The notes under the pieces were generated by a model. The model did no database searches and was not told the origin of the DNA. It worked only from the letters and a program-made list of their open reading frames with translations. From NCBI GenBank assembly GCA_001972305.1, contig BDDD01002882.1, positions 86,233-150,232 on the forward strand: DNA of 64,000 bases, given 5' to 3'. The position numbers and the translations under genes are program-made. The stretch comes from Cephalotus follicularis. Its lineage: Eukaryota > Streptophyta > Magnoliopsida > Oxalidales > Cephalotaceae. This document shows positions 28,303 to 57,945 of this stretch, piece after piece (positions within the stretch are counted from its first letter, which is position 1; every line of letters starts with the position of its first letter).

Positions 28303-28503
28303 CTCCATCTAGTCTCTAAAACGTTTGGGTTTGGTTGAGTTCAATCTTTTATGCAGTTAGAGAATTAGGGTGGTAGGGCAGACGGAGTGTAAGTCCCAAT
28401 AGACCATCGAAACACTCTTACACTAGCTAGAGGGATCATTTACGTTAGACTTGGTGAGATAAAAACTTTAAGATCATTAATAATTAATAAACTGTGTAGG
28501 GTT
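28303..28503 (+). other. Probable leader or intergenic part of the endogenous pararetrovirus
   Basis: This stretch has no LTR match within the window. It has a possible hairpin (GTGTAAG near 28389 and CTTACAC near 28418) and becomes AT-rich toward the ATG at 28504. No tRNA-Met primer site is visible, so it is not shown to include the viral replication origin. Assignment to the virus is inference from position. Confidence 0.35.
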
Positions 28504-29218
28504 ATGTCTTCGCGTACCATTAGTGGTTCAGAAACTAGTAATAATTCAAATAGAGATAAAGAATTAGATGAAAGAATAAAACAATGGCAAAATTGGAAAC
28601 CTCCAAAAATTTCAAATAAAGAAATTTATAAATATAATCCATTTAACCCATTTCATTTCACAGAAAGAATTCAAACAATTGAACAAACTACAAAAATTAC
28701 TAAGGCTCAACAAAATATTCAATTATTAGATGAAAAAACCATTAAAGAATTAGCTAAAAACTTTAAATATATTCATTTCACTTTAGTTCAAGTAACAATT
28801 AAGCCATTAACAAGACAAGGATTAGACACTTCTATCTTGGCATGTCTCCGTGATGCCAGGCATTTAAATTTTGATGATTCCTTGATTGGAGCCATTGAAA
28901 CAAGTCTATGCAATGAACATGTCTATTTTGATGGGTATCCAAATTTAACCATTTTTTAATAGATAAAAATATTCTAGAAACATTAAAAATTAACATTAAG
29001 CTCCACAGTTACAATATGTTACCTGGATCAGAAATAATTGCTATAATTCATCATGTTTATTATAAAGCTACTAATTCGATTTGTCCCCAATCATTAGTAA
29101 ACTTAACAAAAGGAGAAACCACTATGATGAAATGTGTAACAAATGATTCAAACATTTTAATCCCTCAAAAAATTAAATGGAGTGATATTAATATTTCTGA
29201 GGATTGGTCCTTACAATC
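28504..29218 (+). pseudogene. Endogenous pararetrovirus movement protein, first part (frameshifted, then split by element E)
   Basis: The 151-codon frame 28504-28959 and its continuation in the next frame to 29218 resemble Caulimoviridae movement proteins of the 30K superfamily, which open plasmodesmata for cell-to-cell spread. Visible landmarks are LRDARHLNFDDSLIG, the hydrophobic VTIKPL strand, and, after a one-base shift in a T run at about 28951-28956, MLPGSEIIAIIHHVYYKAT. Codons are strongly AT-rich, unlike the transposons around it. Element E inserted at 29218, and the frame resumes at 55817 after one copy of the duplication. The family call rests on motif pattern and order; the genus is not assigned. 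Confidence 0.75.
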
Positions 29219-29509
29219 TGTTACACCCGATCCCGACAACAACCGATACCCTACCGAGAACGTGTATGACATTCCACATGACAACTTCCTTTTGGAAGTC
29301 ACCACATGGTTTTTATAAAACTCATTTTTAAACTTGAAAATCAAGAAGTTAAACGTTTCCAAAAACTTTGAAATTTTTTTCTAACTCTTAAATTTTTACG
29401 AAAATCAGGCATGTAGTATCCGTTTATCGGACGATGCTCCCTGTAAAGAAAACACAGTTTATAACCACACTCCCGAATGAGCAATCAGTTGATTTTAAAT
29501 GGGCTCAGC
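29219..29509 (-). repeat. 3' LTR of element E, piece 1
   Basis: It matches the complement of the LTR G tail (about 38965-39251). It is cut by element F, with a TCAGC duplication at 29505-29509 and 44724-44728, and continues at 44729. A viral frame appears to read through into it to about 29318, but residues after the junction are LTR-derived. Confidence 0.85.
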
Positions 29510-32004
29510 TGTAATACCCCGTTTATTTATGTGTATATTTTCGGATTTTAATTTGTTTTGTTATTATGTTGGTCTATTTTAAGCTTTTATTTGGACTTTT
29601 ATGTTTTGGGCTTTATAATACCAATTATGTTACCTTTTGGATAATTAATAAAATGTAATTGTAGATAAGCAATAATTTTTGTTTGGCATTTTAAATTGAT
29701 TAAAATTAGTTTTAAAATAAACAAGGTAAAAAGGCTTTTCTTAGGAAACAAATATTGTATGTATGGCAAAAGTGTTTTAAATTAGAAATAAAATAAATGT
29801 ATTATGGCAATATTAATTTTTTCCCCTTATTTCTTGTCTCCCTCTCCCTCTCTCGTACGTTTTGCTCCCTCTTCCCCACAAAACAGATTTCTTTCCTCAA
29901 TTCTCCCTATCAATCCTGAAATTTTGCTCATTTTTCCTTATCATAACAGATTTTGATTTCCTTTTTCCCCTAGCATGACCTAAATTGCCTTTTTTTAAGT
30001 GGTATATGTATACTATATCTCCTTGTTATGCCTCCACCATGTCATTGAGCTTGGTAGCCGAAATTGCATGAATTGAAATCTGTTTTGTGCTGCATTGCTT
30101 CATTGAATCAGGTTTGTTATCCTCCACTGTTATGGTTTAGCATCAAGTTTTGTTATCAAAGTCCATTGCATGTTGGTTGCTAGTATGTTTTGATTTCCTG
30201 CCATGTATGTTTTGTTACTGTTTATGAGATTGTTAGCGAGTCTTGAAGTGTCTAGTAATTTAGTAAACAGATTTTGAACCTAACAATGGGTAATTGACAG
30301 GAAATTGAACATATAAGCATCTATGCATGAAATTGAAATTTGTCTCTTTATAAAATATGAACATAGTTATCTTATTGGTTTGTGTCCTGGTGTTTTGTGA
30401 TGGCAGACTTAGAACACCAAATATGAACTGTCTAATCTGGTATAATAACCTGGTAACACTGCATGGATGGAATCGGATCATAGGACTAGAGGTTAGAATT
30501 TCATAAGTCTCTATTAAAAGTGTGATCACCAATGCATGATTTTGGATTCTGGGTGTTTAAATGCAAGTCTTAAGTCACATAAATTCTATGTAAGTGTTTA
30601 AGATCATCTAGTGTGGTAATATTGGAGTTTTGATAGAAAATTGGAATTAAAACTGCTGTTTTTGTTGTTCTGTCGCCCAGAAATGTCGACTGCCTTGTAA
30701 AACAGTCGACTGGTTGCCTTGCACAGTCGACTGGATTCAACCCAGTTTGAGTAGTCGGCTGCCTATGCAGTATAGTGGATATGTTTCGTAAATTAATTGG
30801 TTGTTGACATTTTATGAAATTAAATGTTCCTAACTATATTTTTAGGCTAAGATACGTTACGATATATTATGAAATGATCATCTCTTTACAGTGGAAAATA
30901 AATGAGTTGATATTATGTAATGATTTTTCTATGTCCAGAAAATGTTTAGAAAACGTCTTTACATTTTTAAATCGGTTTTAGAAATAAAACAATGTTTTTG
31001 AAATAAAGATATACACAGAGATATTTCCTACCTATGGAGGTACCATAGGCAAGTCGTGGGCCTGGCACGGGGACATGACACTACCGTAGCGGTGTGATTT
31101 GACTACGGCGTCACTCTATGTTTTGAATAAATCCCATGAGGTGGATTTATGGATCCGATATGTGTGATAGAGGCGTATGGGTATGCTCTAGTATCTGATA
31201 TGTTAAGCATATGGATTCTGGGGATTGATTGTGTAGTGTCGTACGCGTCTTTCCGTTTGGCATGTGGGCCTTGCAAACCCCTTGCAACTACGCATATGTG
31301 TATGCGCTTTGGAACTCTGAGATGAGATTTTGGAAATCGGATAAGTCTCTGTTTGTTTTTCGTTTTGAATATGTTTTGTGATTTTGAACTTGGTTTATGT
31401 CTTGGAATTGAATAACGCTTTAAAAATTAGGTACTCGTTTTAAATTGATTGTATGACTACTTACCTTCGTTTTCTTTTGAAAATAATGTTAATTTATTTA
31501 TGCATAAGGTATATGATATTTAAAGATTCAGGTATTTCCTATCTTTTAAATTATCGTTTTATGTTTTATGATTCTATATCCGTACTGAGGTTTGCTCAGC
31601 CGCGTTTTTGTTTCCATGCGGCAGGTATTCTGGGACAGCATCCGAGAAATGTGTGATGAGCGAGACCTCACCTATGATAAGGATCACTTAGGAAATGGAA
31701 CCATTTATACTTAGTTATTTTATGGTCATGTTAGGACCCCTTTTAAACAATGTTATGTCTTTCAGTCTATGACTTGGATTATATTTTAGTTTTTGGTTTA
31801 TGTTTAAGTTTTCATATTATGAATAAAGTATTAGACAATGTTTTAGATTTTGAATATTAAGTTTTAGATCATCACGTAATTTGAATAAAAGATGAGTTAA
31901 TAATCTGATAAAAAGGAATAAAATCGAGCCATGTTATAAGATAGGTTATGTTTAGTCTCGGATTAGGAACCGTAATGACTCCCGCCGTTCGGGGGGGTGT
32001 TACA
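29510..32004 (+). repeat. 5' LTR of element F (F1)
   Basis: It begins TGTAATACCCCG and ends GGGGGGGTGTTACA. Compared with F2 and F3 it lacks about 490 bases after the CAGTCGACTG cluster (between GCCTATGC near 30760 and TATGTTTCG near 30780). An A-rich and CT-rich U3 precedes the motif cluster. A 90-codon reverse frame is present in both F LTRs but has no recognised family. Confidence 0.9.
30683..30772. repeat. CAGTCGACTG motif cluster in LTR F1 (contracted)
   Basis: Four variants of the 10-base palindrome CAGTCGACTG remain. Copies in F2 (34653-34796, about 7) and F3 (53676-53884, about 10) are longer, and the deletion in F1 begins inside the cluster. Confidence 0.85.
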
Positions 32005-32008
32005 GAGA

Positions 32009-32020
32009 TGGTATCAAAGA
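32009..32020 (+). other. Primer binding site of element F
   Basis: TGGTATCAAAG lies five bases after the LTR end. It is the tRNA-iMet-type site with a G-to-A difference from TGGTATCAGAG. Confidence 0.75.
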
Positions 32021-32177
32021 ATAGGATTTTCTTTCCTTAGAAGACCTGTCTAGGTTTGACCTGTGAGATTGGGTAGACCTTAGGTTAGGATCTTTTGTTG
32101 TGATCTTTCTGACGTGTTTGTTGTTTCAACCGTGGTTTCTTTGTTGTTGTGTTATGTTTTGGATTTATGTTTCATAG

Positions 32178-33376
32178 ATGGTACGAGCAAGGAATACCCC
32201 ACAGGGAAACGAACCAACTGAGGCTCGTGAAGGAGTGCGAACTGAGCCTATGGTTGAAGAGTTAGTGCGACAGGTAGTTGCTCAAGAAATAGATCGACTG
32301 ATTCATGCTATGCAAAATCAAGGGCAAGGACGCCAGGAGCAAGTCGCGGCGGAAAATGCACCGGCCAATGTTCAGGTTGGTAGAGAAACTGGGAACCGGC
32401 CCGACACTCCTACATATGTTTGGCTTGAGCGGTTCCAAAAGCAGAGGCTGCAGTCATTTAGTTTGGCCCTCACACCTGTAGAGGCTGAACACTGGATTGC
32501 GCACATGGAGAAAATTTTCAATGTGTTAGGATGTGATGACGAACAAAAGGTAAGGTTGGCAGCTTATAAATTGGAAGGAGATGCTCAGAAATGGTAGCAA
32601 ACTTTGAAGTTAGCTAAGGGAGGAGACTACATTGATGCCCTAACCTGGTTTGAATTCTGTGAAGTTTTCTATCAGCAGTATTTCCCCACTGCTGACAAGG
32701 AAGCTTACGCAAGGGAGTTTGTTAACACTAGGCAAAAAGATAGTGAATCAGTCACCGAGTTTTTAGCCCGGTTCACTAGGTTAGCGGGTTTTGCTGGATC
32801 CGCGGCGGGGTCTGCATTGGAGCAAGCAGCGAAGTTGAAATTGAAATTGCAGTACCAGCTAAGGGGAAAACTGATAAACTCCAGGTTTGCTGACGTGGCT
32901 GAAGTAGCAAATGCTACGAAGAATATTGAATTATATAGGTTGGACTTTCAGGAAGCTCGACAAGAAAAGGAAAAGAAGCGGAATAGGAGTGATTTTCATG
33001 GGAAGAATTCTGAACAACAAGGTGAAGGCAAACAGTATAAAAAGGATCATAATCAGAATAAGGATGGGGGAAACCCCAATGTTCAGATTTCCTTGTGTGA
33101 TACGTGTGGGAAGCGACATCGATTGGGACATGTTACAAGGCCACTGGGGCATGTTTTGCTTGTGGACAAAAGGGTCATCTCTTTAAGGATTGCCCGAATC
33201 CTCGTATGAGAAATAAAGGAGGAAATGGCAATAATGTGGAGCAACGTAATGTGGGAGGTAGAGTCTTCGCCTTAACAACGCATCAGACTACGAACACACC
33301 AGGTTTTGTTTCGGTTTTGTTTTGTTTTGGTAACTATAAGAGGTTTGATTTGTTGATAAGTCAACTTATTATGTGA
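32178..33376 (+). pseudogene. gag of element F, one stop and one frameshift
   Basis: The frame starts MVRARNTPQGNEPTEAREG and has the retrotransposon Gag capsid region from about residue 80 (ERFQKQRLQSFSLALTP, EHWIAHMEKIFNVLGC, then FYQQYFPTADKEAYAREF and EFLARFTRLAGFA). TAG at 32595-32597 replaces the second of two Trp codons. The nucleocapsid part has two zinc knuckles (CDTCGKRH... and CFACGQKGHLFKDC), with a one-base shift between them at about 33115-33130. The protein ends soon after, with no protease motif. Gag would form particles and bind RNA; this copy cannot be translated whole. Confidence 0.9.
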
Positions 33377-33466
33377 TAACTGCGTTATTTTGTTATGCAT
33401 ATTGAGTTGTTCTTCTGTTATTGATTCGGATTGGTTTATGATAAGATTTCGGGACGAAATCTTTTT

Positions 33467-33479
33467 AAGGGGGGAAGGA
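33467..33479 (+). other. Polypurine tract of element F
   Basis: AAGGGGGGAAGGA abuts the LTR start TGTAATACCCCG at 33480. The preceding GGGACGAAATC is the typical end of gypsy internal regions. Confidence 0.9.
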
Positions 33480-35504
33480 TGTAATACCCCGTTTGTTTAT
33501 GTGTATATTTTCCGATTTTTAATTTGTTTTGTTATTATGTTGGTCTATTTTAAGATTTTATTTGGACTTTTATGTTTTGGGCTTTATAATACCAATTATG
33601 TTACCTTTTGGATAATTAATAAAATGTAATTGTAGATAAGCAATAATTGTTGTTTGGCATTTTAAATTGATTAAAATTAGTTTTAAAATAAACAAGGTAA
33701 AAAGGCTTTTATTAGGAAACAAATATTGTATGTATGGCAAAAGTGTTTTAAATTAGAAATAAAATAAATGTATTATGGCAATATTAATTTTTACCCCTTA
33801 TTTCTTGTCTCCCTCTCCCTCTCCCGTACGTTTTGCTCCCTCTCCCTCACAAAACAGATTTCTTTCCTCAATTTAACCTATCAATCCCGATATTTTGCTC
33901 CTTTTTCCTTATCATAACAGATTTTGATTTCCTTTTTGCCCTAGCATGACCTAAATTGCCTTTTTTTAAGTGGTATATGTATACTATATCTCCTTGTTAT
34001 GCCTCCACCATGTCATTGAGCATGGTAGCTGAAATTGCATGAATTGGAATCTGTTTTGTGCTGCATTGCTTCATTGAATCAGGTTTGTTATCCTCCACTG
34101 TTATGGTTTAGCATCTAGTTTTGTTATCAAACTCCATTGCATGTCGGTTGCTAGTATGTTTTGATTTCCTGCCATGTATGTTTTGTTACTGTTTATGAGA
34201 TTGTTAGCGAGTCCTGAAGTGTCTAGTAATGCTAGTAAACAGATTTTGAACCTAACAATGGGTAATTGACAGGAAATTGAACATATAAGCATCTATGCAT
34301 GAAATTGAAATTTGTCTCTTTATAAAATATGAACATAGTTATCCTATTGGTTTGTGTCCTGGTGTTTTGTGATGGCAGCCTTAGAACACCAAATATGAAC
34401 TGTCTAATCTGGTATAATAACCTGGTAACACTGCATGGATGGAATCGGATCATAGGACTAGAGGTTAGAATTTCATAAGTCTCTATTAAAAGTGTGATCA
34501 CCAATGGATGATTTTTGATTCTAGGTGTTTAAATGCAAGTCTTAAGTCACATAAATTCTATGTAAGTGTTTAAGATCATCTAGTGTGGTAATATCTGAGT
34601 TTTGACAGAAAATTGGAATTGAAACTGCTGTTTTTGCTGTTCTGTCGCCCAGAACAGTCGACTGCCTTGTAGAACAGTCGACCGGTTGCCTTGCACAGTC
34701 GACTGGATTCAACCCAGTTTGAGTAGTCGGCTGCCTATGCCATACAGTCGACTGCCACCCTTGAGTAGTCGACTGGATTTTGTTACAGTCGGCTGGAATT
34801 GTCCAGTAATTTTTCTGGTTTCAAGTTTTGTTATCCGTTTGGTTTTGTAATAATTTAGAGTATGTTTTAAACACTGTTAAATTACTGTATGATGTTTGAA
34901 AGTGATTTTGAACCCTTATATGAACGATATTGTATCTCTTAGATTTTTGTGCTACGAGGGACAATTAGAAATTGTTGATCAATTCGTAAAGTTATTTTTG
35001 TGATCGCATAAGGTACGGATATTTCGTTCCTTGACTCCCTCCTACTGTTTTTATAGTAAAAAGATAGTTTTACTTTATGGATAACATACAGATTCTATCG
35101 TTCTTCGGTTATCTGATTTTATTGAAACTGTCATGTTTTACTTTATAAATAATGTACGGATTCCTATCGTTCCTTGGCTATCTATCAAACTAAAATCACT
35201 TTTATTCTATGATCTCGTTTTATAGACTTGATTTTGTTTTATGATATGTTTCGTAAATTAATTGGTTGTTGACATTTTATGAAATTAAATGTTCCTAACT
35301 ATATTTTTAGGCTAAGATACGTTACGATATATTATGAAATGATCATCTCTTTACAGTGGAAAATAAATGAGTTGATATTATGTAATGATTTTGCTATGTC
35401 CAGAAAATGTTTAGAAAACGTCTTTACATTTTTAAATAGTTTTTAGAAATAAAACAATGTTTTTGAAATAAAGATATACACAGAGTATTTCCTACCTATG
35501 GAGG
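33480..35504 (+). repeat. 3' LTR of element F, left part (F2)
   Basis: It matches F1 and F3. It holds the CAGTCGACTG cluster at 34653-34796 and pairs of TACGGAT...CGTTCCTTG repeats (about 35010-35190). Solo LTR G interrupts it at 35504, with a GGAGG duplication (35500-35504). Confidence 0.9.
34653..34796. repeat. CAGTCGACTG motif cluster in LTR F2
   Basis: Seven variants (CAGTCGACTG, CAGTCGACCG, TAGTCGACTG, CAGTCGGCTG) are spaced about 14-30 bases apart. Confidence 0.85.
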
Positions 35505-38500
35505 TGTGACACCCCGTGTCACTTTTACGAAGTCGATATGCATGACGTGAGCATTATATTGTGACATGTTGTTATTTAAAAAAAAAAAAGAAAAAAAAAG
35601 AGGTCTGGCGCGTCTAGAAGGCGCTAGACGCGCCAGGCAAATAAAAGAAAAAAAGAGCACACTCGGGTGCATAGCGCCCGAGAATGAAGAAGGAAGAGAT
35701 GAGACAGAGAGAGGCGCATAGAGATCGGGGGAGAGACGACGGCGCAAGGCGCCGGACCGGGAGGAGCAGCGCGGGTCCTCACCATCGCCGGTAAGCTTTC
35801 CATCTCCCTCTTTTCTTCTTCTTTCCTTCTCTTCTCCCCATGCCCGATGGCCACTGTCGGTGCGCTTTGGCCCCTGCCACTGTCGTCCGCCACTTTTGGC
35901 GTCGCGGATGGGTACGGTCGTGGTCTAGAAGACAACCTCTTCCCATTTCGATGGCTGTTGCGGTGTGATTCGGCCGGAAAATGGCCTGATTTAGCGGTTG
36001 AGTCGACTGAGTTGAGCTGACTCGCTGCCGCCTATGGCGCCACGTTTGGCGCCGATTCCAGGCGAGTCTCGGCCACCAATGAGTAGACCGGAGCTTGTGG
36101 ATGCCAGGGGTGGTGAGACCGGAGCAATTGCGCCTCAGCCAGAGCTCGGGCGCGGCGGCATCCGCCGATTCTCGGCGAGTTGCGGGCGGGGACGCGTAGT
36201 ACAGGCCGCGCGGACACTTTTTTGTGAAGCGGCCTAAATTGTTTGACGACCGGCGAGTTGACTCAGTGAGTCAACTCACTGCCAGAAGTGGCTGCCCGTT
36301 TTCGGGCGAGCCGCCGTGAGTTTCGATCAATAATGTGAGCTGATCGGTTGTTTTAGGGGTTGTTTTGGGTGTCGTCGGAACTTTGGCAGGTTGACCGGAA
36401 ATTGGCCAAAGCTCCGATGACTCACAGTGTTAATTGCGTATATGTAGAAAGTAACAGATATGCATTGTTTATGCAGAGTGACGGATAATAGAGTTACGAA
36501 ACGATGACGAGAACCCGATAGCCGATTCAAAGCTTCGAGGGGTTAGTTCGTGGAAGTATCGGCTTTGATATTGTGAGTAGAACATCTCCTTCCTTTATCT
36601 TATTGATTTGAAATTCGTTGATGTTTAATATGTGCCTTTATTGTCTCTATTATGATTTGTTGATAGCCTATTTGTCGATTCTGAATTGTCGATATCCTAA
36701 GTTTGTTGATATCCTGTTTGTTGACTTTTATGGCTTGTGATATGTTGATTCCATAATTTCGCTTGGAATCCCTTGTTGATAGTTAGATTTGAATCGACTT
36801 CGGAATCGTTTACTTGAACCCTTTATCGGCATATTTCGATCGAATGTTCATAGTGGTATGACTTGTTGATAGTCGAATTGAAATCAATCCCTTGATCGTT
36901 TACTTTGAGCCCTCTGTTGGTATTCCGATTGAATGTTCATATTGTGGATAGACTGTTGGTGATTTCCATGACTTGTTGATAGCTTCTATTGTTTGGTTCG
37001 ATCATGTAACATGACTTGATATCTTTCGTTTATTCGTTATCCTTTTTTTGGGTATTCTCGATTGAAACCCTATGTTGATATGAGACATTTGTTAATTCAT
37101 TCGCCTTTACTTCCATATCCGCTTGGCTTCCGAGGATAGATATTTGCTTCCTTGTTATTTCCATGCTCATCCTATTTCTGTATTGTTATATTTGAGCTCC
37201 GTTGTTGATATCGTTGAGCTATTCATTATTTGAGAGTCATGTTGTTCATATGTGCCCGGTTTTCTTATGATTGGGATACTGGTTGGGATTTGTATCCCGG
37301 TTGTCTTCTGTTGTTATATTCATCACTGTGATATGATTCCGAGCGGTATATGCTTGATGTTCTGGGTGACTTGGTCACCTTCTCACAATTGTGATATCGT
37401 GTCTTGTTATATCGTGATACTATGTTATATTCTGATGCTGGGTACCGGCATTATGGTTCTACCAGTCCAAGGAGTGGTATATGTTCGACGCTCAACTCTA
37501 CTTAGCAGGCCCATTGGTCTATGATGGGGTGTTATGTGGAAACTGGCCCCGGGTTCCATACCTGGATCTACGGCATACTATTGTCTATGATGGTATGCCG
37601 AGTGTGAGTGCAGCAGAGCTGCTCCATTACCCTCCTATTGGACTGTGTTTGGTTATTGATATATATATATATTGCATGCGGTCCCTCGGATGAGGTTGAG
37701 TGTGCGTGCGGGTTTTTCGGACGATGGTTGGGTCCGTGCACTGATCATGCCGGCCCCTCGTTCGAGGCAGAGGTAGGCACTCTACACCGGTGTATGATGG
37801 ATGATGATCACATCCTGTAGCCTCACCTAGTATTATTGCTGCAGCGGTTATGATATGACGCCATGTGATTTGGCGGGGGTATGATATGACGCCATGTGAT
37901 TTGGCAGGGATATGAGACAGTGATATGATTGGTACCAGCATCCTCTTATATGTTTATGACTCTTTGGGCACATTACATTTTTGATATTGATACTGTCATT
38001 GAGTTATGATCATATCGTTAAGCTTTGATATCCAGATATTTGTTATTGTTGTGACCTTCATTTGTTTGATTATTGTTTTGAGTATGATATTTGTTCAGCG
38101 GACTTGTTGAGTCATTGGTTATTTTGCTGAAGTCTTGCTTTTGGGCTATTCATGAATGTTGATAACATCCGTGATTCTTGATATGTTTATGTACTCGGAT
38201 TTCATTGTACTTGGGGAGTCTTGAGCCTTGAATTTGTTCAACGGCACTTTCATCGTTGGCTTCCGAGTTTCATTTATAAAGTTTGTTACTGTCTATGTTC
38301 ATATTATGGAGACATTGTTGAGTATCGAGATTTTCTTCTCGGATTTCGTTTATACTTGCATATCTTGATTCCTTTTACATTTGTGATTCTCATTTACATC
38401 GCGGACTTCATTTATATTATGGATTTCGTTTACACATCGAGAACCTTGATAGCCCTTTTGTGGTCTCGATATCCCGTGTAGATTATGGTTTGTTATGGAT

Positions 38501-39251: not shown

Positions 39252-39256
39252 GGAGG

Positions 39257-41071: not shown

Positions 41072-41074
41072 GAG

Positions 41075-44723: not shown

Positions 44724-44728
44724 TCAGC

Positions 44729-47700: not shown

Positions 47701-48574
47701 TTACACTTTAAAATTCAATAGCCTTATAATACCATTTACATATACCTTCACTATAAATATATATATATATATCACCACTAATATCATCTAACGTCCTGTC
47801 CTTTATCCATTTCAATGAATCCACCTTTACTAATTATTTCTTAACATGATACTACTTACATATTCATCTTAAAACAACTTTTATTGAAATAAAGAAATAA
47901 TCAATTCTTTTTAACACTTGATCTTAGAAACCAAATTTCAAGTACAAGGAATAGTTAAATAAATTTCTATTTCTTGAATCTCTCACTATAGGTATATAAT
48001 TTCCAACCTACTAACAAGCCAAACCATCCTTAAATCCATAAAGAATATAAATTCCTCTCTACCAACTACAAACCAGAAATTTTTAAAGCATAAATTGATA
48101 ATCTCTGAATTTATATACTTTCACTTTCTTAACACATACTTACTAACATCCATTAATTCTCATTTTAAACCATAAGAATATCAATCAATTTTACTACCCC
48201 TACATGGAACCCTAAAATTCAAAGATTAGCAGTAGTAATCAATTCATGCATTTCTACGTACTGATACTTTGATTATCTTCACAATGAATTCATCAACCAT
48301 TTCTACTTCTATTATAACCATATCTATAATTCATTTAGAAATTAATTCCTTCATGCAATTCCTTAAACCAGAAAAGTTAAAGGAATGGAGATAGTGATGA
48401 ATGTTTATTAATATGCATCAATTCTAACACATTTACATCATAATTCCATAAAGAAAGTCAATTCCTCCCTACCAAAAAATAAACCCGAAATTTATAGAAT
48501 GATAATGTAAAAATGCTAAAGAACTTACAAGGATGAATGAGGAACCACTTATAACTTGTTTCCTTGAGAGATTC
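44729..48574 (-). repeat. 3' LTR of element E, piece 2
   Basis: It continues from 29509 (GGGCTCAGC then CCTCAG is contiguous in related LTRs). It carries the GGGC-NGA-GCCC palindromes (about 44770-44830), the CTAAACCCCTCCCAG module on minus (about 45000-45020), a long minisatellite (45571-45987) and about 900 bases (about 47583-48480) absent from solo LTR B. It is cut at 48574 by a solo family-A LTR. Confidence 0.85.
45571..45987. repeat. Minisatellite in LTR E, about 6 units of 65-75 bases
   Basis: Each unit has CACGAGGGGCCGGCGTATCT, then CACGGACCCT(A/G)GCCCTCGCC, then GAGAAA. LTR G has about one such unit near 37680-37770, so the array expanded in the E lineage. The tract gives an artefactual open frame at 45630-46028. 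Confidence 0.85.
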
Positions 48575-48745
48575 TGTAACGCCCGGTATTTTCCTGAATG
48601 TAATATTCCAATTTATGATGTAATCTTAAATTTGGAATAATAAGAATGTTGAGTTTTTGAAATCAAAGTATGCTTAAAACCCTATTTATGGTCTTGGAAA
48701 TGGGATGTGTATGTTAAAGTTGAAACGGCAACGTTCTGGGGAAAA

Positions 48746-48900
48746 GACATCGACGTCTTTTGGAAAGACGTCGACTCCTTTGGGAGCCAGGGCACACGTG
48801 ATTGAAAGGGACATCCACGTCGACTTTGGGAGAAAGCATCGACACCTTCTTACCCAACTGGAAAAGACATCAACGTCTAAGGGAAGACATCGACGCCTTT
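48746..48900. repeat. ATCGACGTC motif cluster 1 in LTR A4
   Basis: About six variants (ACATCGACGTCTTTTGG, AAGACGTCGACTCC, GCATCGACACC, ACATCGACGCCTTTG) lie in 155 bases, at the same place as in A2. Confidence 0.75.
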
Positions 48901-49657
48901 GTATGAATGGCCAGCACGTTCTTCGTCGGCAGAACAACATGCAAGGGGGATTTGTTTAGAGGCTTACCTAACGCCTTTTCTAGTGCATATTGACGTGTTG
49001 TGCATATGAGTGTGTTGCCAGGAGTGCTCTGAGCATGCTCCTCACATGGAACATGCAAAGATAACCACCCTCACATGCAACCTGCAAGAGAGAAGGTTAA
49101 AGAAAACAAAAAGAAATGCAGAAAAGAGGAAGGTGGGAGAGAATACGAATATGGCCACTAAATGCCAGGAGAAGAATGTCGGGAGGAAGCCTTCTACATA
49201 CAGATAACCCTCCCCACCTATCTCTCTCGTTTTATAACACCTGGAGAGAGAGAGACATTTGGACAGTGTGTATTCCTCCATTGTTGAGCTTGAAGCTTGG
49301 AGCTTGGACCTTGGGATCACTGGTGCGGCTACGGGACAGACCTAGAGGGGCTGCTGTGACCTGTTTGGATACTAAAAGAGGAGGACTTTCGGTTTCTAAC
49401 TTGAAGCCAGAGGTAGGGGAAAGCCATACTGTAAATTCGAGTTTAATATCCATGCATAGTTTATGATTTTGAGTGTGTAAAAATGTATGATTCTTGAATT
49501 GGTATTGTTACTGGATTGATGCCATGATATGCTAGATATGTTTGGAGTATTTGCATGTTGGTTTCTTACTGTGAAAACTCGTTATTACGCATGGTTATGG
49601 GATATTGAGGTCACTGGTTACTAAGTCGCGAGGTAGAAGATGACTACTGGTAGAAAG

Positions 49658-49905
49658 ACATCGACTCCTTTTAGAATAACATCGACGTCATTTAGGTTTT
49701 GCCTTATTACTGATTGAAAGGGATCGACGTCTATGGAAAGACATCGACTCCCTAGACTACCTACCTGGATTCTGACGAAAAAGACGTCGACGTGTGAGTA
49801 ATGAACATCGACGCCTTCTGTGGAAAAACACGACGATACTGGGGCTTGTACATTGATGCATGACATGAATGACATCGACGCCTTTGGGAAAGACGTCGAC
49901 GCCTT
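49658..49905. repeat. ATCGACGTC motif cluster 2 in LTR A4
   Basis: About eight to nine variants lie in about 250 bases. A2 has a longer version with extra copies. Confidence 0.75.
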
Positions 49906-51219
49906 TGTTACTGTTTGGAGTTATCTTCATCAAATGATATGGAATGATCCCAATCCCTATTTGGGTGCATTTGAGCATATGTATGCATTGCATATGTACT
50001 GTTTACTGCCTGATTGTGTACTGTTTGTGTGTTGTCTGTGATTTCTAATGTGTTGATGCTTTAGAAATGCATAGATGAGCTTGGAATAAGATATTTTGAG
50101 TACGAAAATATGTATTGATCAAAAAGCGTATTTTCAACCAAACCGGTAAATGATTTACCCTACTGAAACTGTTACTGATATTTTCTACCGAAATTACCTG
50201 ATTTCAAATGTTGTCAAATTTGGAAACATTTTGGAAAATGACTGCCTGTTCTTGATCAAATCGATCATTACTGTTTACTGTACTGTTACTGTTTAACTTC
50301 ACTATTTGCTCTGTGAATTGTTTGTGATTGTGTTTGAGCTGCTAGTTGCGTGGTGGAGGTTGCCAGCGATTACTAGTGGTAGGGTCGAACCTAGGGGCCA
50401 GGAGCGTGGCTAGGTGACTCACTGTACTGTTGCCTCGCTCGGTTGCCCGATGTGGGGACCGGAGTGGGAGTGTAGCATGGGGCCAGGAGTTGGCGGCGTT
50501 ATATACTGTTGTTGTGGTCCTATGTGGACATACTTCCTGTTGTAGTCCTATGAGGACATACTGTACTGTACTATTTACTGGTCCTTTACGGACATTACTT
50601 TGATTGTTGACATAGCCCTGGCCGGGTTACTACTGCACTGATACTGTACGCATATATTTCTTATATACGTAACACTGATATTTTACTGTACTGACATACG
50701 TATTTTCACATATGTATAAACTGGGTCTCCACTGCACTGCATCATATATGCATTCATATCATGACATGCATTATGTTAATCCCGAATTACTGTTATGACT
50801 TGGCCGAGTGAGGACAAAGGCTAACCCCCTACTTTACAGATTGATGCAGTGGACTTTTGGATCGGCTTGGACGAAGATCAAGTTGTTATATTTTGATCTT
50901 GTTATCTATCTGTTTTGTTAACCTTTGTGGTTCATGGTTTTGGATACACCATTATCATGGTATTGTTTATGAAGGAATTTTGTTTGTACTGTAATTTTCA
51001 CGCTCCGTTTTATGGGCGATTAACTCTTATGACCTGTTTTTGGGTAGCGTACGGTATGGGACGTACGTTACGTGTTGACAGCTTATGTTCTTTTATGCTT
51101 CCGCCACTGTTGTTCTTGGAAAAGTTTTAAATTTCACGGTTTTGCATGAGCTGTATTTTATGTTAATTGCCTTTACCGCTTTAATATCGCGTTTTCTTTA
51201 AACGGGGTGTGACAGATTC

Positions 51220-51754
51220 ATGAAGAAAACTGAACAAAGTGAGCTCCAATGGTGGAAGAAACGTCGGCCAGGTGAGGGAATGGAGGGATGCCGTCAATTT
51301 CTACTCTTAGGTTCCTTTAAGCTTGAAGATTGGAGCACTTCCTAGAGACTTGGAGAAGTGGGGAGAGCTTGGGCCGGTGCTACTTGAAGATATGGAGAAG
51401 GCGTCGGTGGCTTGGAGAATGAAGGGCCGATTTCTTTAGCTTCGTTTGTAAGCTTGGGAAGTTTGTAGAAGGTTGGGGAAAGATGGAGAAATTACCGGTG
51501 TTTAGGACAGAAATATAGGCATTTTGGCCCAAAATCATGTAAAAAAATCGACTGCTTAAGGGAGATAAATTTGGGCCGAACTTCATGCTTAAAAGAAACA
51601 TTTTTGGGCAAAAAAAATGCTAATTCGGCTAGAGTAATAAGAGGAGGGCTTGACAAGTTGGGCCAAATTTTTCAAATGAAATCCAAGAGATTTTTGGGCC
51701 TTATAAACATATAAAATTTGGCATACTTATACAAATAAAATTTGTGCCTTAACT

Positions 51755-51790
<36 letters not shown>

Positions 51791-51941
51791 ATAATCAACT
51801 TAAATCATTATAGGCTCTAATTAACATAGCTCAAAATAAATTTATGCATGCCTTAAATAAATCACCAAAGTCACATATTAATTATTATACCAAGCATGCT
51901 CTCATAAAATATATTCTTAAAATATAACACGGGGTGTTACA
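51220..51941 (-). repeat. 3' LTR of element E, piece 3 (LTR start on minus)
   Basis: It resumes after GATTC and ends, on plus, with ATAACACGGGGTGTTACA, followed by the complement of a polypurine tract (AAAAAGGGGGGATAC on minus). It is closely similar to the start of solo LTR B (15486 onward), with an expanded TA run at about 51762-51787. Confidence 0.9.
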
Positions 51942-52634
51942 GTATCCCCCCTTTTTAGAATTTTGTCCTCAAAATTCATATAACTAATTTGTCAAGAGAG
52001 CTAGATAGTGCCTCAACATCACATCTTCGTGCTCCCCGTCGTATTGACATTGATAAAACATCAAATACTCCATTTAATCTCCCAATTCGTTTCAATATTT
52101 AACCTTCCCAAAATACATATTCATACCCAAGGCTAAACATCAAGCAATCAACATTCATTCATGTAATCAACAATCCTTACTCTTAAACCATCCGATATCC
52201 ACACAATCCATTAATCGAACCTTATGCTCTATTTATACATGCCCTCTTGTCTTACACCACACATCGATAATCTTCGTATCTCATATATCAACCTTTAAAT
52301 TAAATTCATGAGTGAGCATAATAAACATTATAGTTTGTATCATCAAGTTTATATTCATTTCCTCCAAGAAGAATTTTAAGTCACCAAGAATTATCTCATG
52401 TATTCTCAGAGATTTTGCCACATGATTACCTCAAGATAAGATGCTGCTGAGAAAACAAATACTTTAGGCTCGGGTGGTTGGTAAAGATTTGGCAAGTCTC
52501 CCCAGGGAGAACTACTAGGTCTCAAAAATCCTTTCTCCAATAATTATTGTACATGCACCTTTAGTTCTGTCAACTCAACCAGTGCCATTCTGTAAGGTGT
52601 GAGAGATATAGGAACTATACTCGGAACCAACTCT
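51942..52634 (-). pseudogene. Internal remnant of element E with an RT lead fragment
   Basis: The polypurine tract lies at 51942-51956. 52442-52634 on minus translates to the RT lead: VPISLTPYRMALVELTELK and then LLEKGFLRPSSSPWGD, with a stop between. This shows a Ty3/gypsy origin. The stretch 51960-52440 is AT-rich with nothing recognised. At about 52635 the sequence jumps into the LTR start, so the rest of pol, gag, the primer site and most of the 5' LTR are deleted. Confidence 0.7.
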
Positions 52635-52695
52635 ATCTATATCCCATAATCAACTTAAAACATTATAGGCTCTAATTAACATAGCCCAAAATAAA
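52635..52695 (-). repeat. 5' LTR remnant of element E, part 1
   Basis: It matches 51785-51844 (CCCATAATCAACTTAAA...AAAATAAA) and continues at 55710 beyond the solo LTR F3. Confidence 0.85.
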
Positions 52696-55600
52696 TGTAA
52701 TACCCCGTTCGTTCGTGTGCTTATTTTCGGATTTTTATTTAATTTTATTCGTTTTACTATATTATGTTGGCCTATTTTTAAAATTTTATTTGGACCTTTA
52801 TGTTTTAGGCTTTATAATGCCAATTATGTTGCCTTTTGGATAATTAATAAAATGTAATTGTAGATAGGTAATAATTGTTGTGGGTATTTTAAAGTGATTA
52901 AAATTTGTTTTAATACAAACAAGGTAAAAAAGATTTTAAAAGGGAACAAATATTGTATTTTGGCAAAATAATTTTTATTTCCTATCTTCTTCCCTCTCTC
53001 TCCCGTTTTTCTTCCTTCTTCCTTCTTCCTCCCCCAAACTGATTTCTTTCCTTTTACCTCTCCCTCAATCCCGAAATTATGCCTTTTTTCCCTATTATAC
53101 CAGATTTGGATTCCTTTTCTACATTACCATGACCTAAATTGCCTTTCCCATATTGTATATATATGTCATTATGCATTGTTTGTGCCTCCATTGTGTATCT
53201 ATCTCCTGGTAGCCGAACCTGCAAGTTTAGAATCTGTTTTGTTCTCCTTTGATCATCATACCAGGTTTGTTCTTCTTCCGTTGTTATGGTTTAACATTTA
53301 GTTTTGTGTTAAGGTTATCAAAGTCTTTTGCATGTTGGTGGCTAGTGTATTTTGTTTTTAATCCCTGCCATATATGTTTTGCTAGTGTTTAAGAGATTGT
53401 GAGCAAGTCCTGAGGTATTTAGTAATGGTTATAAACAGATATTGAAACTAGAAATTGGTATATGAAAGAAATTGAGTAATAGTTATGCATGCTATGAATT
53501 AGAATTTTGCTTCTCTTTAAAGTAAGATCACCCTTGCATGATTTCTTGGCTTTAAATGCAACTAATAAGTCACATAAGTCCTATATAAGTGTTTAAGATC
53601 ATCTAAGTGTTGTAATATTGGAGTTTTGACGGAAAATTTTAATTGAACTGCTGTGTTTTGCTGTTCTGTCGAGCAGAACAGTCGACTGTCCATTTAAACA
53701 GTCGACTGTTAGACCTTGAGTAGTCGACTGCCATCCTTGAACAGTCGACTGGTTGCCTTGCACAGTCGAGTGGACCCTCTGTCATAGTCGACTGGATTCA
53801 ACCCAGTTTGAGTAGTCGACTGCCTATGCCATACAGTCGACTGCCACCCTTTACATAGTCGACTGGATTGTGTTACAGTCGGCTGGAATTGCCCAATAAT
53901 TTTTTTGGTTTCAAGTTTTGTAATCCGTTTGTCCGTCTAATGATTTGTAGTCTGTTTTAAACACTATTAAATTACTGTTTGATGTTTGGAAGTGATTTTT
54001 GAATCCCTATATGTATGATATTGCATCTCTTAGATTTTTGTGCTTCGAAGGACTTTTAAAATTGTTGATCAATTCTTCTATCTTTGTTGTGATCGCTTAA
54101 GGTACGGATCATTCTTTCTTTGGCGCTCCTATTGATTTTATTAGAGTAAAAATGTTAGTTTTACTATATGAATAACGTACGGATCTTCGTTCTTTGATAC
54201 ACTCTAGTGATTTTATAAAAATAAATCAGTTATATGTTTTTGTGAAAATGTACGGATTCTTCGTTCTTAGCTTATTCCTTCGGTTTTACTAAAATGAATG
54301 CAGATATGTTTTAGTACGGATGTTTCGTTCCTTGACACCCTCCTACTGTTTTTATAGTAAAAAGATAGTTTTACTTTATGGATAACGTACGGATTCTATC
54401 GTTCATTGGCTATCTGATTATCAAACTAAAATCAGTTTTATTCTATGATCTCGTTTTATAGACTTGATTATGTTTTATGATATGTTTCGTAAATTAATTG
54501 GTTGTTGACATTTTATGAAATTAAATGTTCCTAGCTATATTATTATGCTAAGACACGTTACGATATATTATGAAATGCTCATCTCTTTACAGTGGAAAAT
54601 AAATGAGTTGGTATTATGTAATGATTTTGCTATGTCCAGAAAATGTTTAGAAAACGTCTTTACATTTTTAAATCATTTTTAGAAATAAAACAATGTTTTT
54701 GAAATAAGGATATACACAGAGATATTTCCTACCTATGGAGGTACCATAGGCATGTCGTGGGCCTGGCACGGGGACATGACACTACCGTAGCGGTGTGATT
54801 TGACTACGACGTCTCTCTATGTTTTGAATAAATCCCATGAGGTGGATTTATGGATCCGATATGTGTGATAGAGGCGTATGAGTATACTCTAGTATATGAT
54901 ATGTTAAGGATATGGATTCTGGGGATTGATTGTGTAGTGCCGTACACGTCTTTCCGTTTGGCATGTGGGCCTTGCAAACCCCTTGCAACTACGCATATGT
55001 GTATGCGCTTTGAATCTCTGAAATGAGATTTTGGAAATCGGATAAGTCTCTGTTTGTTTTTCGTTTTGAATATGTTTTGTGATTTTGAACTTGGTTTATG
55101 TCTTGGAATTGAACAACGCTTTAAAAATTAGGTACTCGTTTAAAATTGATTGTATGACTACTTACCTTCGCTTTTGAAAATAATGTTAAATTATTTTATG
55201 CATAAGGTATATGTTATTTAAAGATTCAGGTATTTTCTATCTTTTAAATTATCGTTTTATGTTTTATGATTCTATATCCGTACTGAGGTTTGCTCAGCCG
55301 CGTTTTTGTTTCCATGCGGCAGGTATTCTGGGACAGCAACCGGGAAATGTGTGATGAGCGAGATGCCACCAATGATAAGGATCACTTAGGAGATGGAACC
55401 GTTTATGCTTAGTTATTTTTATGGTCATGTTAGGACCCCCTATTAGAACAATATTATGTCTTTCAGTTTATGACTTTGGATTATATTTCAGTTTTTTGTT
55501 TATGTTTAAGTTTTCATATTATGAATAAAGTTTTAGACAATGTTTTAGATTTTATGTATTAAGTTATAGACCATCACGCAATTCGAATAAAAGATGAATA

Positions 55601-55704
55601 AATAATCTGATAAAAAGGATAAAATCAAGTTATATCTCATGATATGTTATGTTTAGTTTTGGATTAGGAACCGTAACGACTCCCGCCGTTCAGGGGGTGT
55701 TACA
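52696..55704 (+). mobile_element. Solo LTR of family F (F3), 3.0 kb, target duplication ATAAA
   Basis: It begins TGTAATACCCCG and ends GGGGTGTTACA, flanked by ATAAA at 52691-52695 and 55705-55709. It is the full-length member of the family, with the longest CAGTCGACTG array (53676-53884) and several TACGGATC...CGTTC repeats at 54105-54410. No coding sequence. Confidence 0.95.
53676..53884. repeat. CAGTCGACTG motif array in LTR F3, about 10 copies
   Basis: Variants of the palindrome (CAGTCGACTG, TAGTCGACTG, CAGTCGAGTG, CAGTCGGCTG) occur about every 20 bases for 210 bases. The core is the perfect palindrome GTCGAC. Confidence 0.9.
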
Positions 55705-55709
55705 ATAAA

Positions 55710-55811
55710 TTTATGCATGTCTTAAATAAAATCACCAAAGTCACATATTAATTATTATACCAAGCATGCTCTCATAAAATATATTCTTAAAATATAACAC
55801 GAGCTGTTACA
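55710..55811 (-). repeat. 5' LTR remnant of element E, part 2 (outer end)
   Basis: It matches 51839-51941 and ends ATAACACGAGCTGTTACA. The adjoining CAGTC (55812-55816) pairs with CAATC at 29214-29218. Confidence 0.85.
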
Positions 55812-55892
55812 CAGTCCGATACTATTGATCATAATCAAGAAAATATTGAAAGCACTTCTTTACATTCAATCACTCAAAATGAAGAAGGATAA
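55812..55892 (+). pseudogene. Endogenous pararetrovirus movement protein, last part
   Basis: After one copy of the target duplication the same frame that is open up to 29218 continues here for about 25 codons and ends at TAA 55890-55892. The agreement of phase across a 26.6-kb insertion supports a single gene. The codon composition is again very rich in A and T. Confidence 0.65.
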
Positions 55893-56360
55893 ATAAAAAT
55901 TAGGTTTGATAAAACTGTGAAAACCCATTCAAACTTAGAAAATTTAAGAGAAAATGTTAATTACTTAAACATTTGTGACGAAAAATTAGATAAAAATTAC
56001 CAATTTCAGCCACATAGATCTTCTACTTCTAGTATTAGATCTGGACCATCAAACTATTTTGATACTAAAACTAAATTGTCAGAAATATCGAATCAGTCAA
56101 GTATTTTAAAAGTAATTTATACTCAAGAAAATCCACAAGCTAAAAATTCTCAAGAAAACACTCAAGAATTTAATGAACCTATTTCCCTCACATATTCTGA
56201 GATGAAACTTACTTCTCAGTTTATGATGATGAGAATTAATAAACTATTTGAATTCAATAAAGATTTAATAAGAGCAAATTTTCTTCAAGAAAAATATTTA
56301 CGAAAAAGATACAGATTCTTTAAAAAATATTCCAAAATTGAACAAAATGATATTATATGA
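55893..56360 (+). pseudogene. Pararetroviral open frame between movement and coat regions
   Basis: The frame is in phase with the movement-protein frame beyond its TAA and stays open to TGA 56358-56360. It has no ATG near its start, so it may be a continuation of one long protein after a nonsense change. It is Asn-, Lys- and Ser-rich, with a Leu/Phe/Lys-rich end (NKLFEFNKDLIRANFLQEKY) that may be helical. Its last bases overlap the next frame as ATGA, an overlap common between adjacent Caulimoviridae genes. I recognise no domain. Confidence 0.5.
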
Positions 56361-56764
56361 CTAAAATCAAGACTCATGTTATGTTTTTTTATTATTTAAA
56401 ATTTTATATTAACCAACAAAAAAATAAAAAATATTTTGAAGAAGAAAATAAAATATTAGAAAATAAAGAAGATAAAAATTTTGGAATTAAACGTTCCTTT
56501 GAAAAGCAATACAATGAAGAAAAAGAATTTAAAATTTTTATGAACCAAAAAACCACCACAACATGGTTAACTTCTGATAACAAAACAATTGAAGCAATTC
56601 ATCCACCATCTGAAAAAATTCAAATTAACATAAAAAATAATCAAATACAACCTGCACCTTACAAATTACAAATTAAAACAAATAATACTCAGATAACAAC
56701 AAATGAAACCAATATAATTATTGAACAAAATAATTATACAAACAAATATCTTGAAACATTATGA
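56357..56764 (+). pseudogene. N-terminal part of pararetroviral coat/polyprotein frame
   Basis: A 135-codon frame starts at the ATG that overlaps the previous stop and ends at TGA 56762-56764, where Trp is likely. It is Lys/Asn/Gln-rich, with an acidic-lysine stretch (KKYFEEENKILENKEDKN). Further stops follow to about 57000. It leads toward the coat-like region and is probably its N-terminus, but no domain is recognised. Confidence 0.5.
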
Positions 56765-57003
56765 TCACAATTATCTAGAATAGAAAATACCATTCCAAAG
56801 GTTAAACAAAACTATTCAAAAAATTAAACAAAAACTCAAAAAATTAAACCATTATTTACACCTTATAAAATTCCTTCCTCCCAAATAAAACAATTAACAA
56901 TAAATGACATTAATGAAAAATTCCTGATACACCAGATACACCAACAACAATAGTACCCACAACATATACTTCGCGTACTCCATACAAAGATAAAAATAAA
57001 ATA

Positions 57004-57945
57004 ATGAACGTTATTCAAGAAATTGAAACATTTTCAGACGATTCTGTCCAAGAAATTAATAACTGCTACAAAAATTGACCCATTAAAAATTGGGTCATTA
57101 ACTTCATACTATTACAGACCAATTAATCCAGATTTACAAATTGAAGAAAGGGAAAAATTTACTCGAGTTTCATATCAAAGAGGAACCATTTACGAATGGA
57201 ACATTGATGATATGAATGAGTATCATATTATTAACAAATTACAAGAAATGACTATGTAAGTAATGCTCATAAAATTAAAAACAATTCAGCTAAAGCTGTT
57301 GCAAATCTTTTAATTGCCGGATTTACTGGACAGTTAAAAGGATGGTGAGATAATGTTCTTACTACGCAACAACAAACAGAAATTTTAGAAACTATTCAAG
57401 TCAATGAGTTAAAAGAACCAATTTTTTATAGTAATAATGAAACTATTGAAGATGCAGTATCAATATTAATTTACAATATTGCCAAATATTTCATAGGAGA
57501 TCCTATTTATTTAAAGGATAGGACAGCCGATCAATTATCAAATTTAAGATGTGAAAAATTACAAGATTTTCGGTGGTACAAAGACACATTCATGACTAAA
57601 GTTTTAACTAGGGAAGATGCAAATCAATCCTATTGGAAAGAAAAATTCATAGCAGGATTACCAACATTATTTGCTGAAAAAATTAAAAATAAATATAGAG
57701 AAAAACATAAAGGTGTTGTACCTTATGAAACATTAACCTATGGAGATATTATAAGCACATTTAAGAAAACTAGATTAGAATTTTGTAATGACATCAAAAT
57801 GAGTAAAGAAATCAAAAGAGATTAAAAAACTTATAAAAAAGAATTAGGAGATTTTTGCACTCAATTTGGTTACGAACCATTTAAACCTCCACCTTCAAAA
57901 ACAAAAAAATTACAAAAACATAAAAGAGATAAGAAATACTATTAC
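57004..57945 (+). pseudogene. Endogenous pararetrovirus coat-protein region, broken and cut off
   Basis: This stretch resembles the Caulimoviridae capsid region, which packages DNA and shares ancestry with retroviral Gag. Landmarks are YQRGTIYEWNIDDMNEY, then LLIAGFTGQLKGW with a TGA where the next Trp is expected (about 57348), FRWYKDTFMTKV, FIAGLPTLFAEKIKNKYR and a basic end KKLQKHKRDKKYYYC that normally leads into a CCHC zinc finger. It has several stops and frame changes (near 57260, 57348 and 57823). A reverse family-F-like LTR begins exactly at the Cys codon, so the zinc finger and any protease-RT are not in this window. Confidence 0.75.

What the first reader, a model, noticed from the sequence alone, without database searches (positions are those of the whole stretch)
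28303..57945. Endogenous pararetrovirus split by a stack of retrotransposons
Seen: two AT-rich coding blocks (28504-29218 and 55812-57945), unlike the flanking transposons in composition, whose reading phase agrees across a 26.6-kb insertion bordered by CAATC/CAGTC. Family knowledge: landmarks of the 30K movement protein and of a Caulimoviridae capsid occur in the expected order. Inference: one viral integration, later hit by element E, then by at least four further insertions. A virus fossil with a datable stack of insertions gives a minimum age for the infection. The genus is not obvious to me.
Basis: partly seen in the sequence, partly recalled or inferred. Interest (0 to 1): 0.75.

Follow-up and report, generated by a model that had tools for sequence, protein, structure and literature searches.

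The report
Virus fossil split by jumping genes
A broken copy of an ancient plant virus sits in this pitcher-plant genome, cut in two by a nest of jumping genes, and its sister copies suggest that the virus carried its genes on two separate DNA circles.

Summary
The finding holds. Two AT-rich blocks (viral from at least 28353 to 29218, and 55812-57945) are one broken copy of the movement/coat part of a caulimovirid. In all 7 of 55 held sister stretches that contain both flanks, the flanks lie side by side and overlap by exactly 5 bp, the target-site duplication CAATC/CAGTC of a 26.6-kb nest of LTR elements. LTR divergence falls in nesting order. The host is Cephalotus follicularis, by matching contig lengths. 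The virus family is abundant: 570 first-look coat candidates, 150 scored, all matched.

The unexpected part lies in the sister copies. Behind coat and zinc finger comes an unknown ORF in 31 of 36 loci, protease/RT in 0 of 36. Protease-RT-RNase H sits on a second unit without the coat, seen on five contigs. Both units are followed by the same intergenic region (90.5% and 92.9% identical). I read this as an extinct two-component caulimovirid. Two-component florendoviruses are in print; here the coat unit lacks the protease and the 3' ORFs are unrelated. The genus could not be tested, and the RT-anchored genome search did not complete.

The parts
28353..28503 (+). tail of the viral intergenic region before the movement ORF (28303-28352 not shown to be viral)
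   Evidence: blastn to L025 from 28353; intergenic-region match 28353-28470, 76.9%
28504..29218 (+). movement-protein (30K family) part of the viral ORF, frame change near 28954
   Evidence: PF01107 E 1.8e-12; 69 homologous proteins, all 69 named Cephalotus; frames
29214..29218 (+). left target-site duplication CAATC of element E
   Evidence: 5-bp overlap in 7 of 7 sister stretches holding both flanks
29219..29509 (+). element E, start of its 5' LTR
   Evidence: TGTTACACC start at the duplication; 86% to 38962-39252, minus
29510..35504 (+). element F: LTR A 29510-32004, internal part with gag-like ORFs 32178-33206 (gag by eye, no profile run), LTR B from 33480
   Evidence: LTR A/B K2P 0.028 over 2113 sites; self-BLAST; ORFs
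35505..39251 (-). element G inside LTR B of F, duplication GGAGG on both sides
39252..39836 (+). continuation of LTR B of F, cut off at 39836
   Evidence: 97.8% to 31036-31620
39837..51215 (+). young LTR element H (Gypsy-like by eye), LTRs 99.7% identical; left side truncated, no duplication found
   Evidence: K2P 0.0032 over 1236 sites; long ORFs 41321-44484
51216..52695 (+). rest of E: 5' LTR end (to 51941), short internal remnant, start of the 3' LTR remnant
   Evidence: 51835-51941 is 96.3% to 55704-55811; 51779-51844 to 52634-52699, 93.9%
52696..55704 (+). solo LTR C inside the 3' LTR of E, duplication ATAAA on both sides
55705..55811 (+). end of the 3' LTR of E
55812..55816 (+). right target-site duplication CAGTC of E
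55812..57348 (+). viral ORF continued: movement-coat linker, DUF7588 region, DUF7746; several stops and frame changes
   Evidence: PF24496 E 1e-4 (below cut-off), PF24925 E 3.1e-9; ORF list
57349..57822 (+). coat-protein domain, open over 158 codons
   Evidence: PF22909 E 6.5e-20; 69 homologous proteins, 45 of them Cephalotus
57823..57945 (+). start of the stretch that leads to the zinc finger in sister copies; cut before the finger
   Evidence: 80% to L004 over residues 2-39
57946..59375 (-). next LTR-type element that cuts the virus on the right (TGTAACACCCCCG start), related to F LTRs; its far end not defined
   Evidence: 58216-58926 is 73% to 30942-31660, minus

Best explanation
The two blocks are one endogenous caulimovirid fragment, a piece of the movement-coat unit ('component B'), in Cephalotus follicularis. 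It entered the genome once and decayed. LTR element E then inserted into the movement-coat ORF and made a 5-bp duplication; F, G, C and H inserted into E, and another element cut the right side. Sister copies show the wider system. Component B (about 6.1 kb, added up from pieces) carries movement protein, coat, zinc finger and a separate ORF X. Component A (about 6.2 kb at C714) carries only the start of the movement ORF, then a DUF7588 region, protease, RT, RNase H and a different 3' ORF. Both are followed by the same intergenic region, and a tRNA-Met primer site lies in it. Most likely these were two circular DNAs of one virus: A supplied reverse transcription, B supplied coat and movement, and one promoter/primer region drove both. 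Shown: the fossil, the insertion with its duplication, the two unit types, the shared region. Inferred: separate circles, joint replication, and that the window copy belonged to a B unit.
For: Profiles and homologs. Uninterrupted relatives: 22 of 69 block-1 protein matches and all 7 stretches (of 55) that hold both flanks, 5-bp overlap each. LTR divergence in nesting order: E 0.038, F 0.028, H 0.0032. Window copy end branch 0.066 against median 0.018 of 20 loci. ORF X directly behind coat-zinc finger in 18 of 19 loci and 15 of 20 (3 loci shared, so 31 of 36 distinct); protease there in 0 of 36. A units: L043+L048, L022+L026, L042, L029, L028/L036. Intergenic region behind ORF X against that behind the A 3' ORF: 90.5% over 931 bp and 92.9% over 832 bp. 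Primer site at 6 distinct places (7 rows). ORF X matches the part behind RT/RNase H pieces of a Mucuna protein, 30%, E 4e-16, so its place behind the coat is best read as loss of protease-RT-RNase H from B.
Against: All A units were reached next to B loci, because the RT-anchored genome search did not complete (34 busy replies to the genome search). The counts start from coat hits, and 5 of the 36 loci are cut before either ORF could be seen. Movement starts of A against those of coat-proven copies are only 81.3-87.5% identical (window and C1256, four comparisons), mostly under the 87% used for florendoviruses, though the copies are decayed; against movement starts of unproven unit type they are 86.7-96.2%. 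The primer site was not seen behind the A 3' ORF: at C714 and C4404 the region there stops short of it or at it. At C714 and C4404 B and A lie head to tail in one stretch, which one 12-kb circle would also give. The A unit of C1310 (L042) carries a longer movement part, and that of C802 (L029) is divergent (48-65%), so A is not uniform; for the same reason the full movement part behind B at C7820 (L025) does not prove B-B tandems. Annotated Cephalotus proteins join coat to protease (P0153, P0155, P0162, P0208, P0222, P0240, P0246, P0249). The one checked in DNA, P0162 on C9338, is a spliced model over coat-zinc finger-ORF X; the rest were not checked.
Confidence: 0.72

Rival explanations
1. 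The virus was an ordinary one-circle caulimovirid; the coat units without protease-RT are defective deletion derivatives that spread with the help of complete virus, and the complete form is simply under-sampled here.
For: Kalanchoe and Mucuna records hold coat-zinc finger-protease-RT in one annotated protein (P0251-P0253, P0215; not checked in DNA), so the one-circle order is probably ancestral. Some A copies share an RT deletion, so defective forms did multiply or were duplicated. Eight Cephalotus models join coat to protease. Movement starts of A and coat-proven B are only 81-88% identical.
Against: 0 of 36 coat loci have protease behind the zinc finger, 31 of 36 have ORF X. The only joined model checked in DNA is not contiguous.
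Confidence: 0.2
2. One large circle of about 12.3 kb carried B and A in tandem with two intergenic regions.
For: B-IR-A in one orientation at C714 and C4404.
Against: At C7820 a full movement part, not the short A start, follows B (L025), although the longer-movement unit of C1310 could explain that. Of 13 of the 20 spread rows with an intergenic match behind ORF X, only 5 (4 contigs) reach A pieces within 7 kb. Caulimovirid genomes in print are 7.1-9.8 kb (PMC10377300 passage).
Confidence: 0.1
3. The blocks are host genes or Gag of LTR elements that resemble viral proteins.
For: The window is full of LTR elements.
Against: Movement-protein and caulimovirid coat profiles; shared order and tRNA-Met primer site in sister copies.
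Confidence: 0.01

Closest known systems
Two-component florendoviruses of Vitis, Oryza and Sorghum (Geering et al. 2014, PMC4241990, passages read) and Beta (cited in the review PMC10377300, passages read)
   Same: Two unit types of 5.5-6.9 kb sharing the intergenic region at >90%; coat and RT on different units; compound insertions of both; high copy number
   Different: There component B also keeps the protease and its C-terminal extension is homologous to ORF2 of A. Here no protease was found on B, and its ORF X has no similarity to the 3' ORF of A. Movement identity of A to coat-proven B is 81-88%, against >87% there. The genus of the Cephalotus virus is not established.
Aristotelia chilensis virus 1, placed in Petuvirus by its authors (PMC4411674; abstract and part 1 of the results read)
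   Same: Endogenous caulimovirid in another plant of the order Oxalidales (order recalled)
Petunia vein clearing virus (Petuvirus)
   Same: Family Caulimoviridae; movement and coat in one polyprotein
   Different: One polyprotein also holds protease-RT-RNase H (passage of PMC4241990); in the Cephalotus coat unit the ORF stops after the zinc finger and ORF X follows

Membership tests
Caulimoviridae (endogenous caulimovirid) | 30K movement-protein domain | tested here: met
   PF01107 E 1.8e-12
Caulimoviridae (endogenous caulimovirid) | caulimovirid coat domain with CCHC zinc finger | tested here: met
   PF22909 E 6.5e-20 in the window; zinc knuckle PF00098 in sister copy L004; the finger itself is cut off in the window
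Caulimoviridae (endogenous caulimovirid) | retropepsin, RT and RNase H of caulimovirid type | tested here: inconclusive
   Not in the window. In sister loci: RVP E 1.8e-6, RVT_1 listed for P0189, RT-RNase H run in L043
Caulimoviridae (endogenous caulimovirid) | tRNA-Met primer-binding site in the intergenic region | tested here: met
   6 distinct sites in sister loci; that stretch is missing in the window copy
Genus Petuvirus | one polyprotein movement-coat-protease-RT-RNase H | tested here: not met
   0 of 36 coat loci have protease behind the zinc finger, 31 of 36 have ORF X
Genus Petuvirus | RT groups with petuviruses | not testable with these tools
   no named virus sequence reached
Florendovirus (proposed genus) | RT groups with florendoviruses | not testable with these tools
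   no named reference among the 120 listed of 143 hits
Florendovirus (proposed genus) | second ORF of 45-58 kDa specific to the genus | tested here: inconclusive
   ORF X exists, about 400 codons added up from pieces; no florendovirus ORF2 was available to compare
Two-component florendovirus layout | intergenic regions of A and B >90% identical | tested here: met
   90.5% over 931 bp, 92.9% over 832 bp; the C802 pieces are shorter and mixed, 89% over 140 and 77% over 106
Two-component florendovirus layout | movement parts of A and B >87% identical | tested here: inconclusive
   A (C714, C4404) against coat-proven B (window, C1256): 81.3, 83.5, 84.5 and 87.5% over 139-152 bp; against units of unproven type (C7820, C7353) 86.7-96.2%
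Two-component florendovirus layout | component B keeps protease and a C-terminal part homologous to ORF2 of A | tested here: not met
   no protease before the intergenic region; ORF X against the 3' ORF of A, best E 3.7

The most novel reading that the evidence does not exclude
An extinct or unseen caulimovirid that split structural and replication genes completely over two circles joined only by a common promoter/primer region, evolved independently of the known two-component florendoviruses, with defective RT units that still multiplied in trans; the window then dates one of its coat units by a nest of LTR elements.
Probability: 0.33. Interest if true: 0.7.

Novelty: new variant of a known kind. 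Interest (0 to 1): 0.5.

Why it matters
In the papers seen here, a divided genome among retroelement viruses is claimed only for florendovirus fossils (PMC4241990 and PMC10377300, passages). A further case with a cleaner split would show that division of labour arose again in reverse-transcribing plant viruses, and the many copies in one genome make it testable by counting. The window adds a coat-unit fossil with a stack of dated insertions, a minimum age for the infection of Cephalotus. It also warns that annotated plant proteins joining coat to protease can be spliced models over broken viral DNA (one case checked).

Tried and rejected
Host gene or LTR-element Gag: rejected by profiles and sister copies. 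Named relatives in a viral collection: IMG/VR gave none in four scans. Genus by RT: abandoned; the protein search listed 120 of 143 hits, none named as a virus. Protease/RT piece of the virus inside the window: none; the RT and RNase H queries hit only at 28-42% in places that I read as LTR-element pol. Continuing the contig to the right: it ends with the window. RT-anchored copy survey: not completed. PDB by sequence: one hit at E 0.64, ignored. The rates used for ages (7e-9 and 1.3e-8 per site and year) are recalled from other plants, not calibrated here. A first tree with non-homologous flank in some rows was replaced.

Literature: 'Cephalotus follicularis' with 'Caulimoviridae' gave one paper, seen in the listing only, on orchid elements. 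A wider search held 229 papers, of which the 10 listed have no Cephalotus. A third gave 7 papers on Cephalotus with transposable elements, seen in the listing only. 'petuvirus' with 'bipartite genome' gave three papers, all on florendoviruses or reviews; one search listed 20 of 26. PMC open licences only; no supplements were looked at.
Full report
What was checked. Composition, ORFs and sequence confirm the blocks and the borders. Pfam finds the movement protein in block 1 (PF01107, E 1.8e-12) and DUF7588 (E 1e-4, below its curated cut-off), DUF7746 (3.1e-9) and the caulimovirid coat domain (PF22909, 6.5e-20) in block 2. Block 1 changes frame near 28954; block 2 holds several stops and frame changes; so the gene is broken. 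Viral similarity is shown from 28353.

Host. All 69 movement-protein hits and 45 of the 69 coat hits are Cephalotus follicularis; the other coat hits are Cornus, Camellia and unnamed records. The window is contig C2882 (86233-150232) of a 1.577-Gb assembly with 9,746 contigs. Contig lengths given with Cephalotus protein records equal contig lengths of this assembly (13,142; 206,291; 313,939; 459,662; 1,055,451), so it is that genome, and the identities of 72-94% among the better Cephalotus hits are between sister copies.

The insertion. In other copies the ORF is not interrupted. Of 136 held proteins 69 match block 1; 22 of these continue from window 29216 into 55812 with one residue matching both sides; P0135 does so one base off, P0054 and P0060 match both blocks elsewhere. 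In DNA, 7 of 55 held stretches contain both flanks (L006, L015, L017, L035, L042, L052, L054) and all 7 join them with exactly 5 bp of overlap; 2 hold only the left and 9 only the right flank. That is the target-site duplication, now CAATC/CAGTC. This shows the order of events better than reading phase.

The stack. E starts TGTTACACC at 29219 and ends TGTTACA at 55811; its LTR end recurs at 51941. Inside E lie F (LTRs A and B), G in LTR B (duplication GGAGG), a solo LTR C in the 3' LTR (duplication ATAAA), and H with a truncated left side and no duplication. Divergence: E 0.038 +- 0.015 on 163 sites (6 differences), F 0.028 +- 0.004 on 2,113 (its three parts range from 0.012 to 0.034), H 0.0032 on 1,236. 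With recalled rates of 1.3e-8 and 7e-9 this is about 1.5-2.7, 1.1-2.0 and 0.1-0.2 million years. The order fits the nesting, but E and F overlap in error. That the start piece 29219-29509 and the end pieces belong to one LTR is inferred from the ends and the duplication, since the LTR start of the other side is lost.

Age of the virus copy. In a tree of 20 coat loci (the best-scoring 20) the window copy has an end branch of 0.066 against a median of 0.018, and pairs with L003 at 100/100. Differences to L003 are spread over codon positions (15, 7, 17), while those to the other five loci compared cluster at third positions (for example 15, 9, 40). So much of the end branch looks like decay after integration; 0.066 would be about 5-9 million years at the recalled rates, an upper guess, with E as lower bound.

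Abundance. The coat query gave 570 first-look candidates; 150 were scored and all 150 matched, the window itself included, at 69-100% identity. The count is a lower bound.

What follows the coat in sister copies. In the 19 other best loci, 18 have pieces of ORF X directly behind coat-zinc finger; the exception is L017, which is rearranged; none has protease there (about 1 kb of DNA behind the zinc finger was held). In 20 loci taken down the 150-row list with 7 kb downstream, 15 have ORF X and none has protease before the intergenic region; L030, L040, L044, L045 and L047 lack ORF X. Three loci are shared between the sets, so the total is 31 of 36 distinct loci with ORF X and 0 of 36 with protease. 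The window copy was left out, as an insertion cuts it before the zinc finger. ORF X pieces have no Pfam match at E 1, apart from weak hits of its last piece under their cut-offs.

The second unit. Five contigs (C714, C4404, C1310, C802, C1409) show protease-RT behind an intergenic region. In four of them DUF7588 precedes the protease, and in none coat-zinc finger does; C1409 is rearranged with inversions, C802 is a divergent form (48-65%), and C1310 has a longer movement part. The best run is C714: B, intergenic region, movement start, DUF7588, protease, RT, RNase H (L043), then a 3' ORF and the intergenic region again (L048), 6,225 bp from one intergenic start to the next. B adds up to about 6,140 bp from pieces of different copies (window, L043). 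The intergenic region behind ORF X and that behind the A 3' ORF are 90.5% identical over 931 bp (C714) and 92.9% over 832 bp (C4404); the short C802 pieces give 89% and 77%. The tRNA-Met primer site lies in that region at 6 distinct places; behind the A 3' ORF it was not seen, as the region stops short of it at C714 and at it at C4404. Movement starts of A against coat-proven copies (window, C1256) are 81.3-87.5% identical in four comparisons, and against units of unproven type (C7820, C7353) 86.7-96.2%.

A test against this reading. Eight annotated Cephalotus proteins join coat to protease (P0153, P0155, P0162, P0208, P0222, P0240, P0246, P0249). For P0162 I fetched part of its contig: the DNA reads coat-zinc finger-ORF X, then a repeated piece coat end-zinc finger-ORF X, so the joined protein is a spliced model. 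The other seven were not checked in DNA. Kalanchoe and Mucuna records do have coat-zinc finger-protease-RT in one annotated protein (P0251-P0253, P0215), also unchecked in DNA; a Mucuna record has an ORF X relative behind protease-RT-RNase H pieces (P0241, 30%, E 4e-16). The one-circle order is therefore probably ancestral, and B arose by loss of protease-RT-RNase H between zinc finger and ORF X.

Comparison with print. Geering et al. 2014 (PMC4241990, passages) describe components A and B of florendoviruses with >90% intergenic and >87% movement identity, B with movement, coat and protease and an extension homologous to ORF2 of A. The review PMC10377300 (passages) adds Beta and states that multipartite genomes are otherwise not found in Ortervirales. 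The Cephalotus units meet the intergenic criterion, are mixed on the movement one, and differ in B's missing protease and in unrelated 3' ORFs. PMC13308828 (abstract, passages), PMC9794742 (word search), PMC10377300, PMC5766536 and PMC9719215 (passages) have no 'Cephalotus' in their main text.

Verdict. The fossil and its stack of insertions are real and of a known kind. The two-unit system behind it is likely (about 0.7), of a known kind in a new variant, and unproven until RT-anchored loci and an RT tree are seen.

Noticed in passing
window 27833-28302 and 3300-3770: A 470-bp stretch, 94% identical to another in the window, ends just before the left edge of the viral block; it may be an element that cut the virus on the left.
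   Followed up: no
window 39837-51215: A very young LTR element (LTRs 99.7%) whose left LTR is truncated against the interrupted F LTR, with no target duplication: a deletion or recombination joined them.
   Followed up: partly
window 29510-32004 and 52696-55704: LTRs A and C are only 73% identical in their first part but 94% in their last 1.2 kb, as if recombined from two subfamilies.
   Followed up: no
L022:3530-4228, L027 (same contig), protein P0139 (another contig): A-unit copies share a shortened RT core, so defective units multiplied or were duplicated.
   Followed up: partly
protein records P0153, P0155, P0162, P0208, P0222, P0240, P0246, P0249: Annotated Cephalotus proteins fuse coat to protease; P0162 is a spliced model over broken viral DNA (C9338), the others were not checked.
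   Followed up: partly
L026 about 3350 onward: The A copy at C4404 ends at the primer site and is followed by a TA run (seen in translation,-type listing), as reported for integration borders of caulimovirids (PMC10377300 passage).
   Followed up: no
window 45571-45985: Short tandem array with offsets of about 70-75 bp, 73-79% alike.
   Followed up: no
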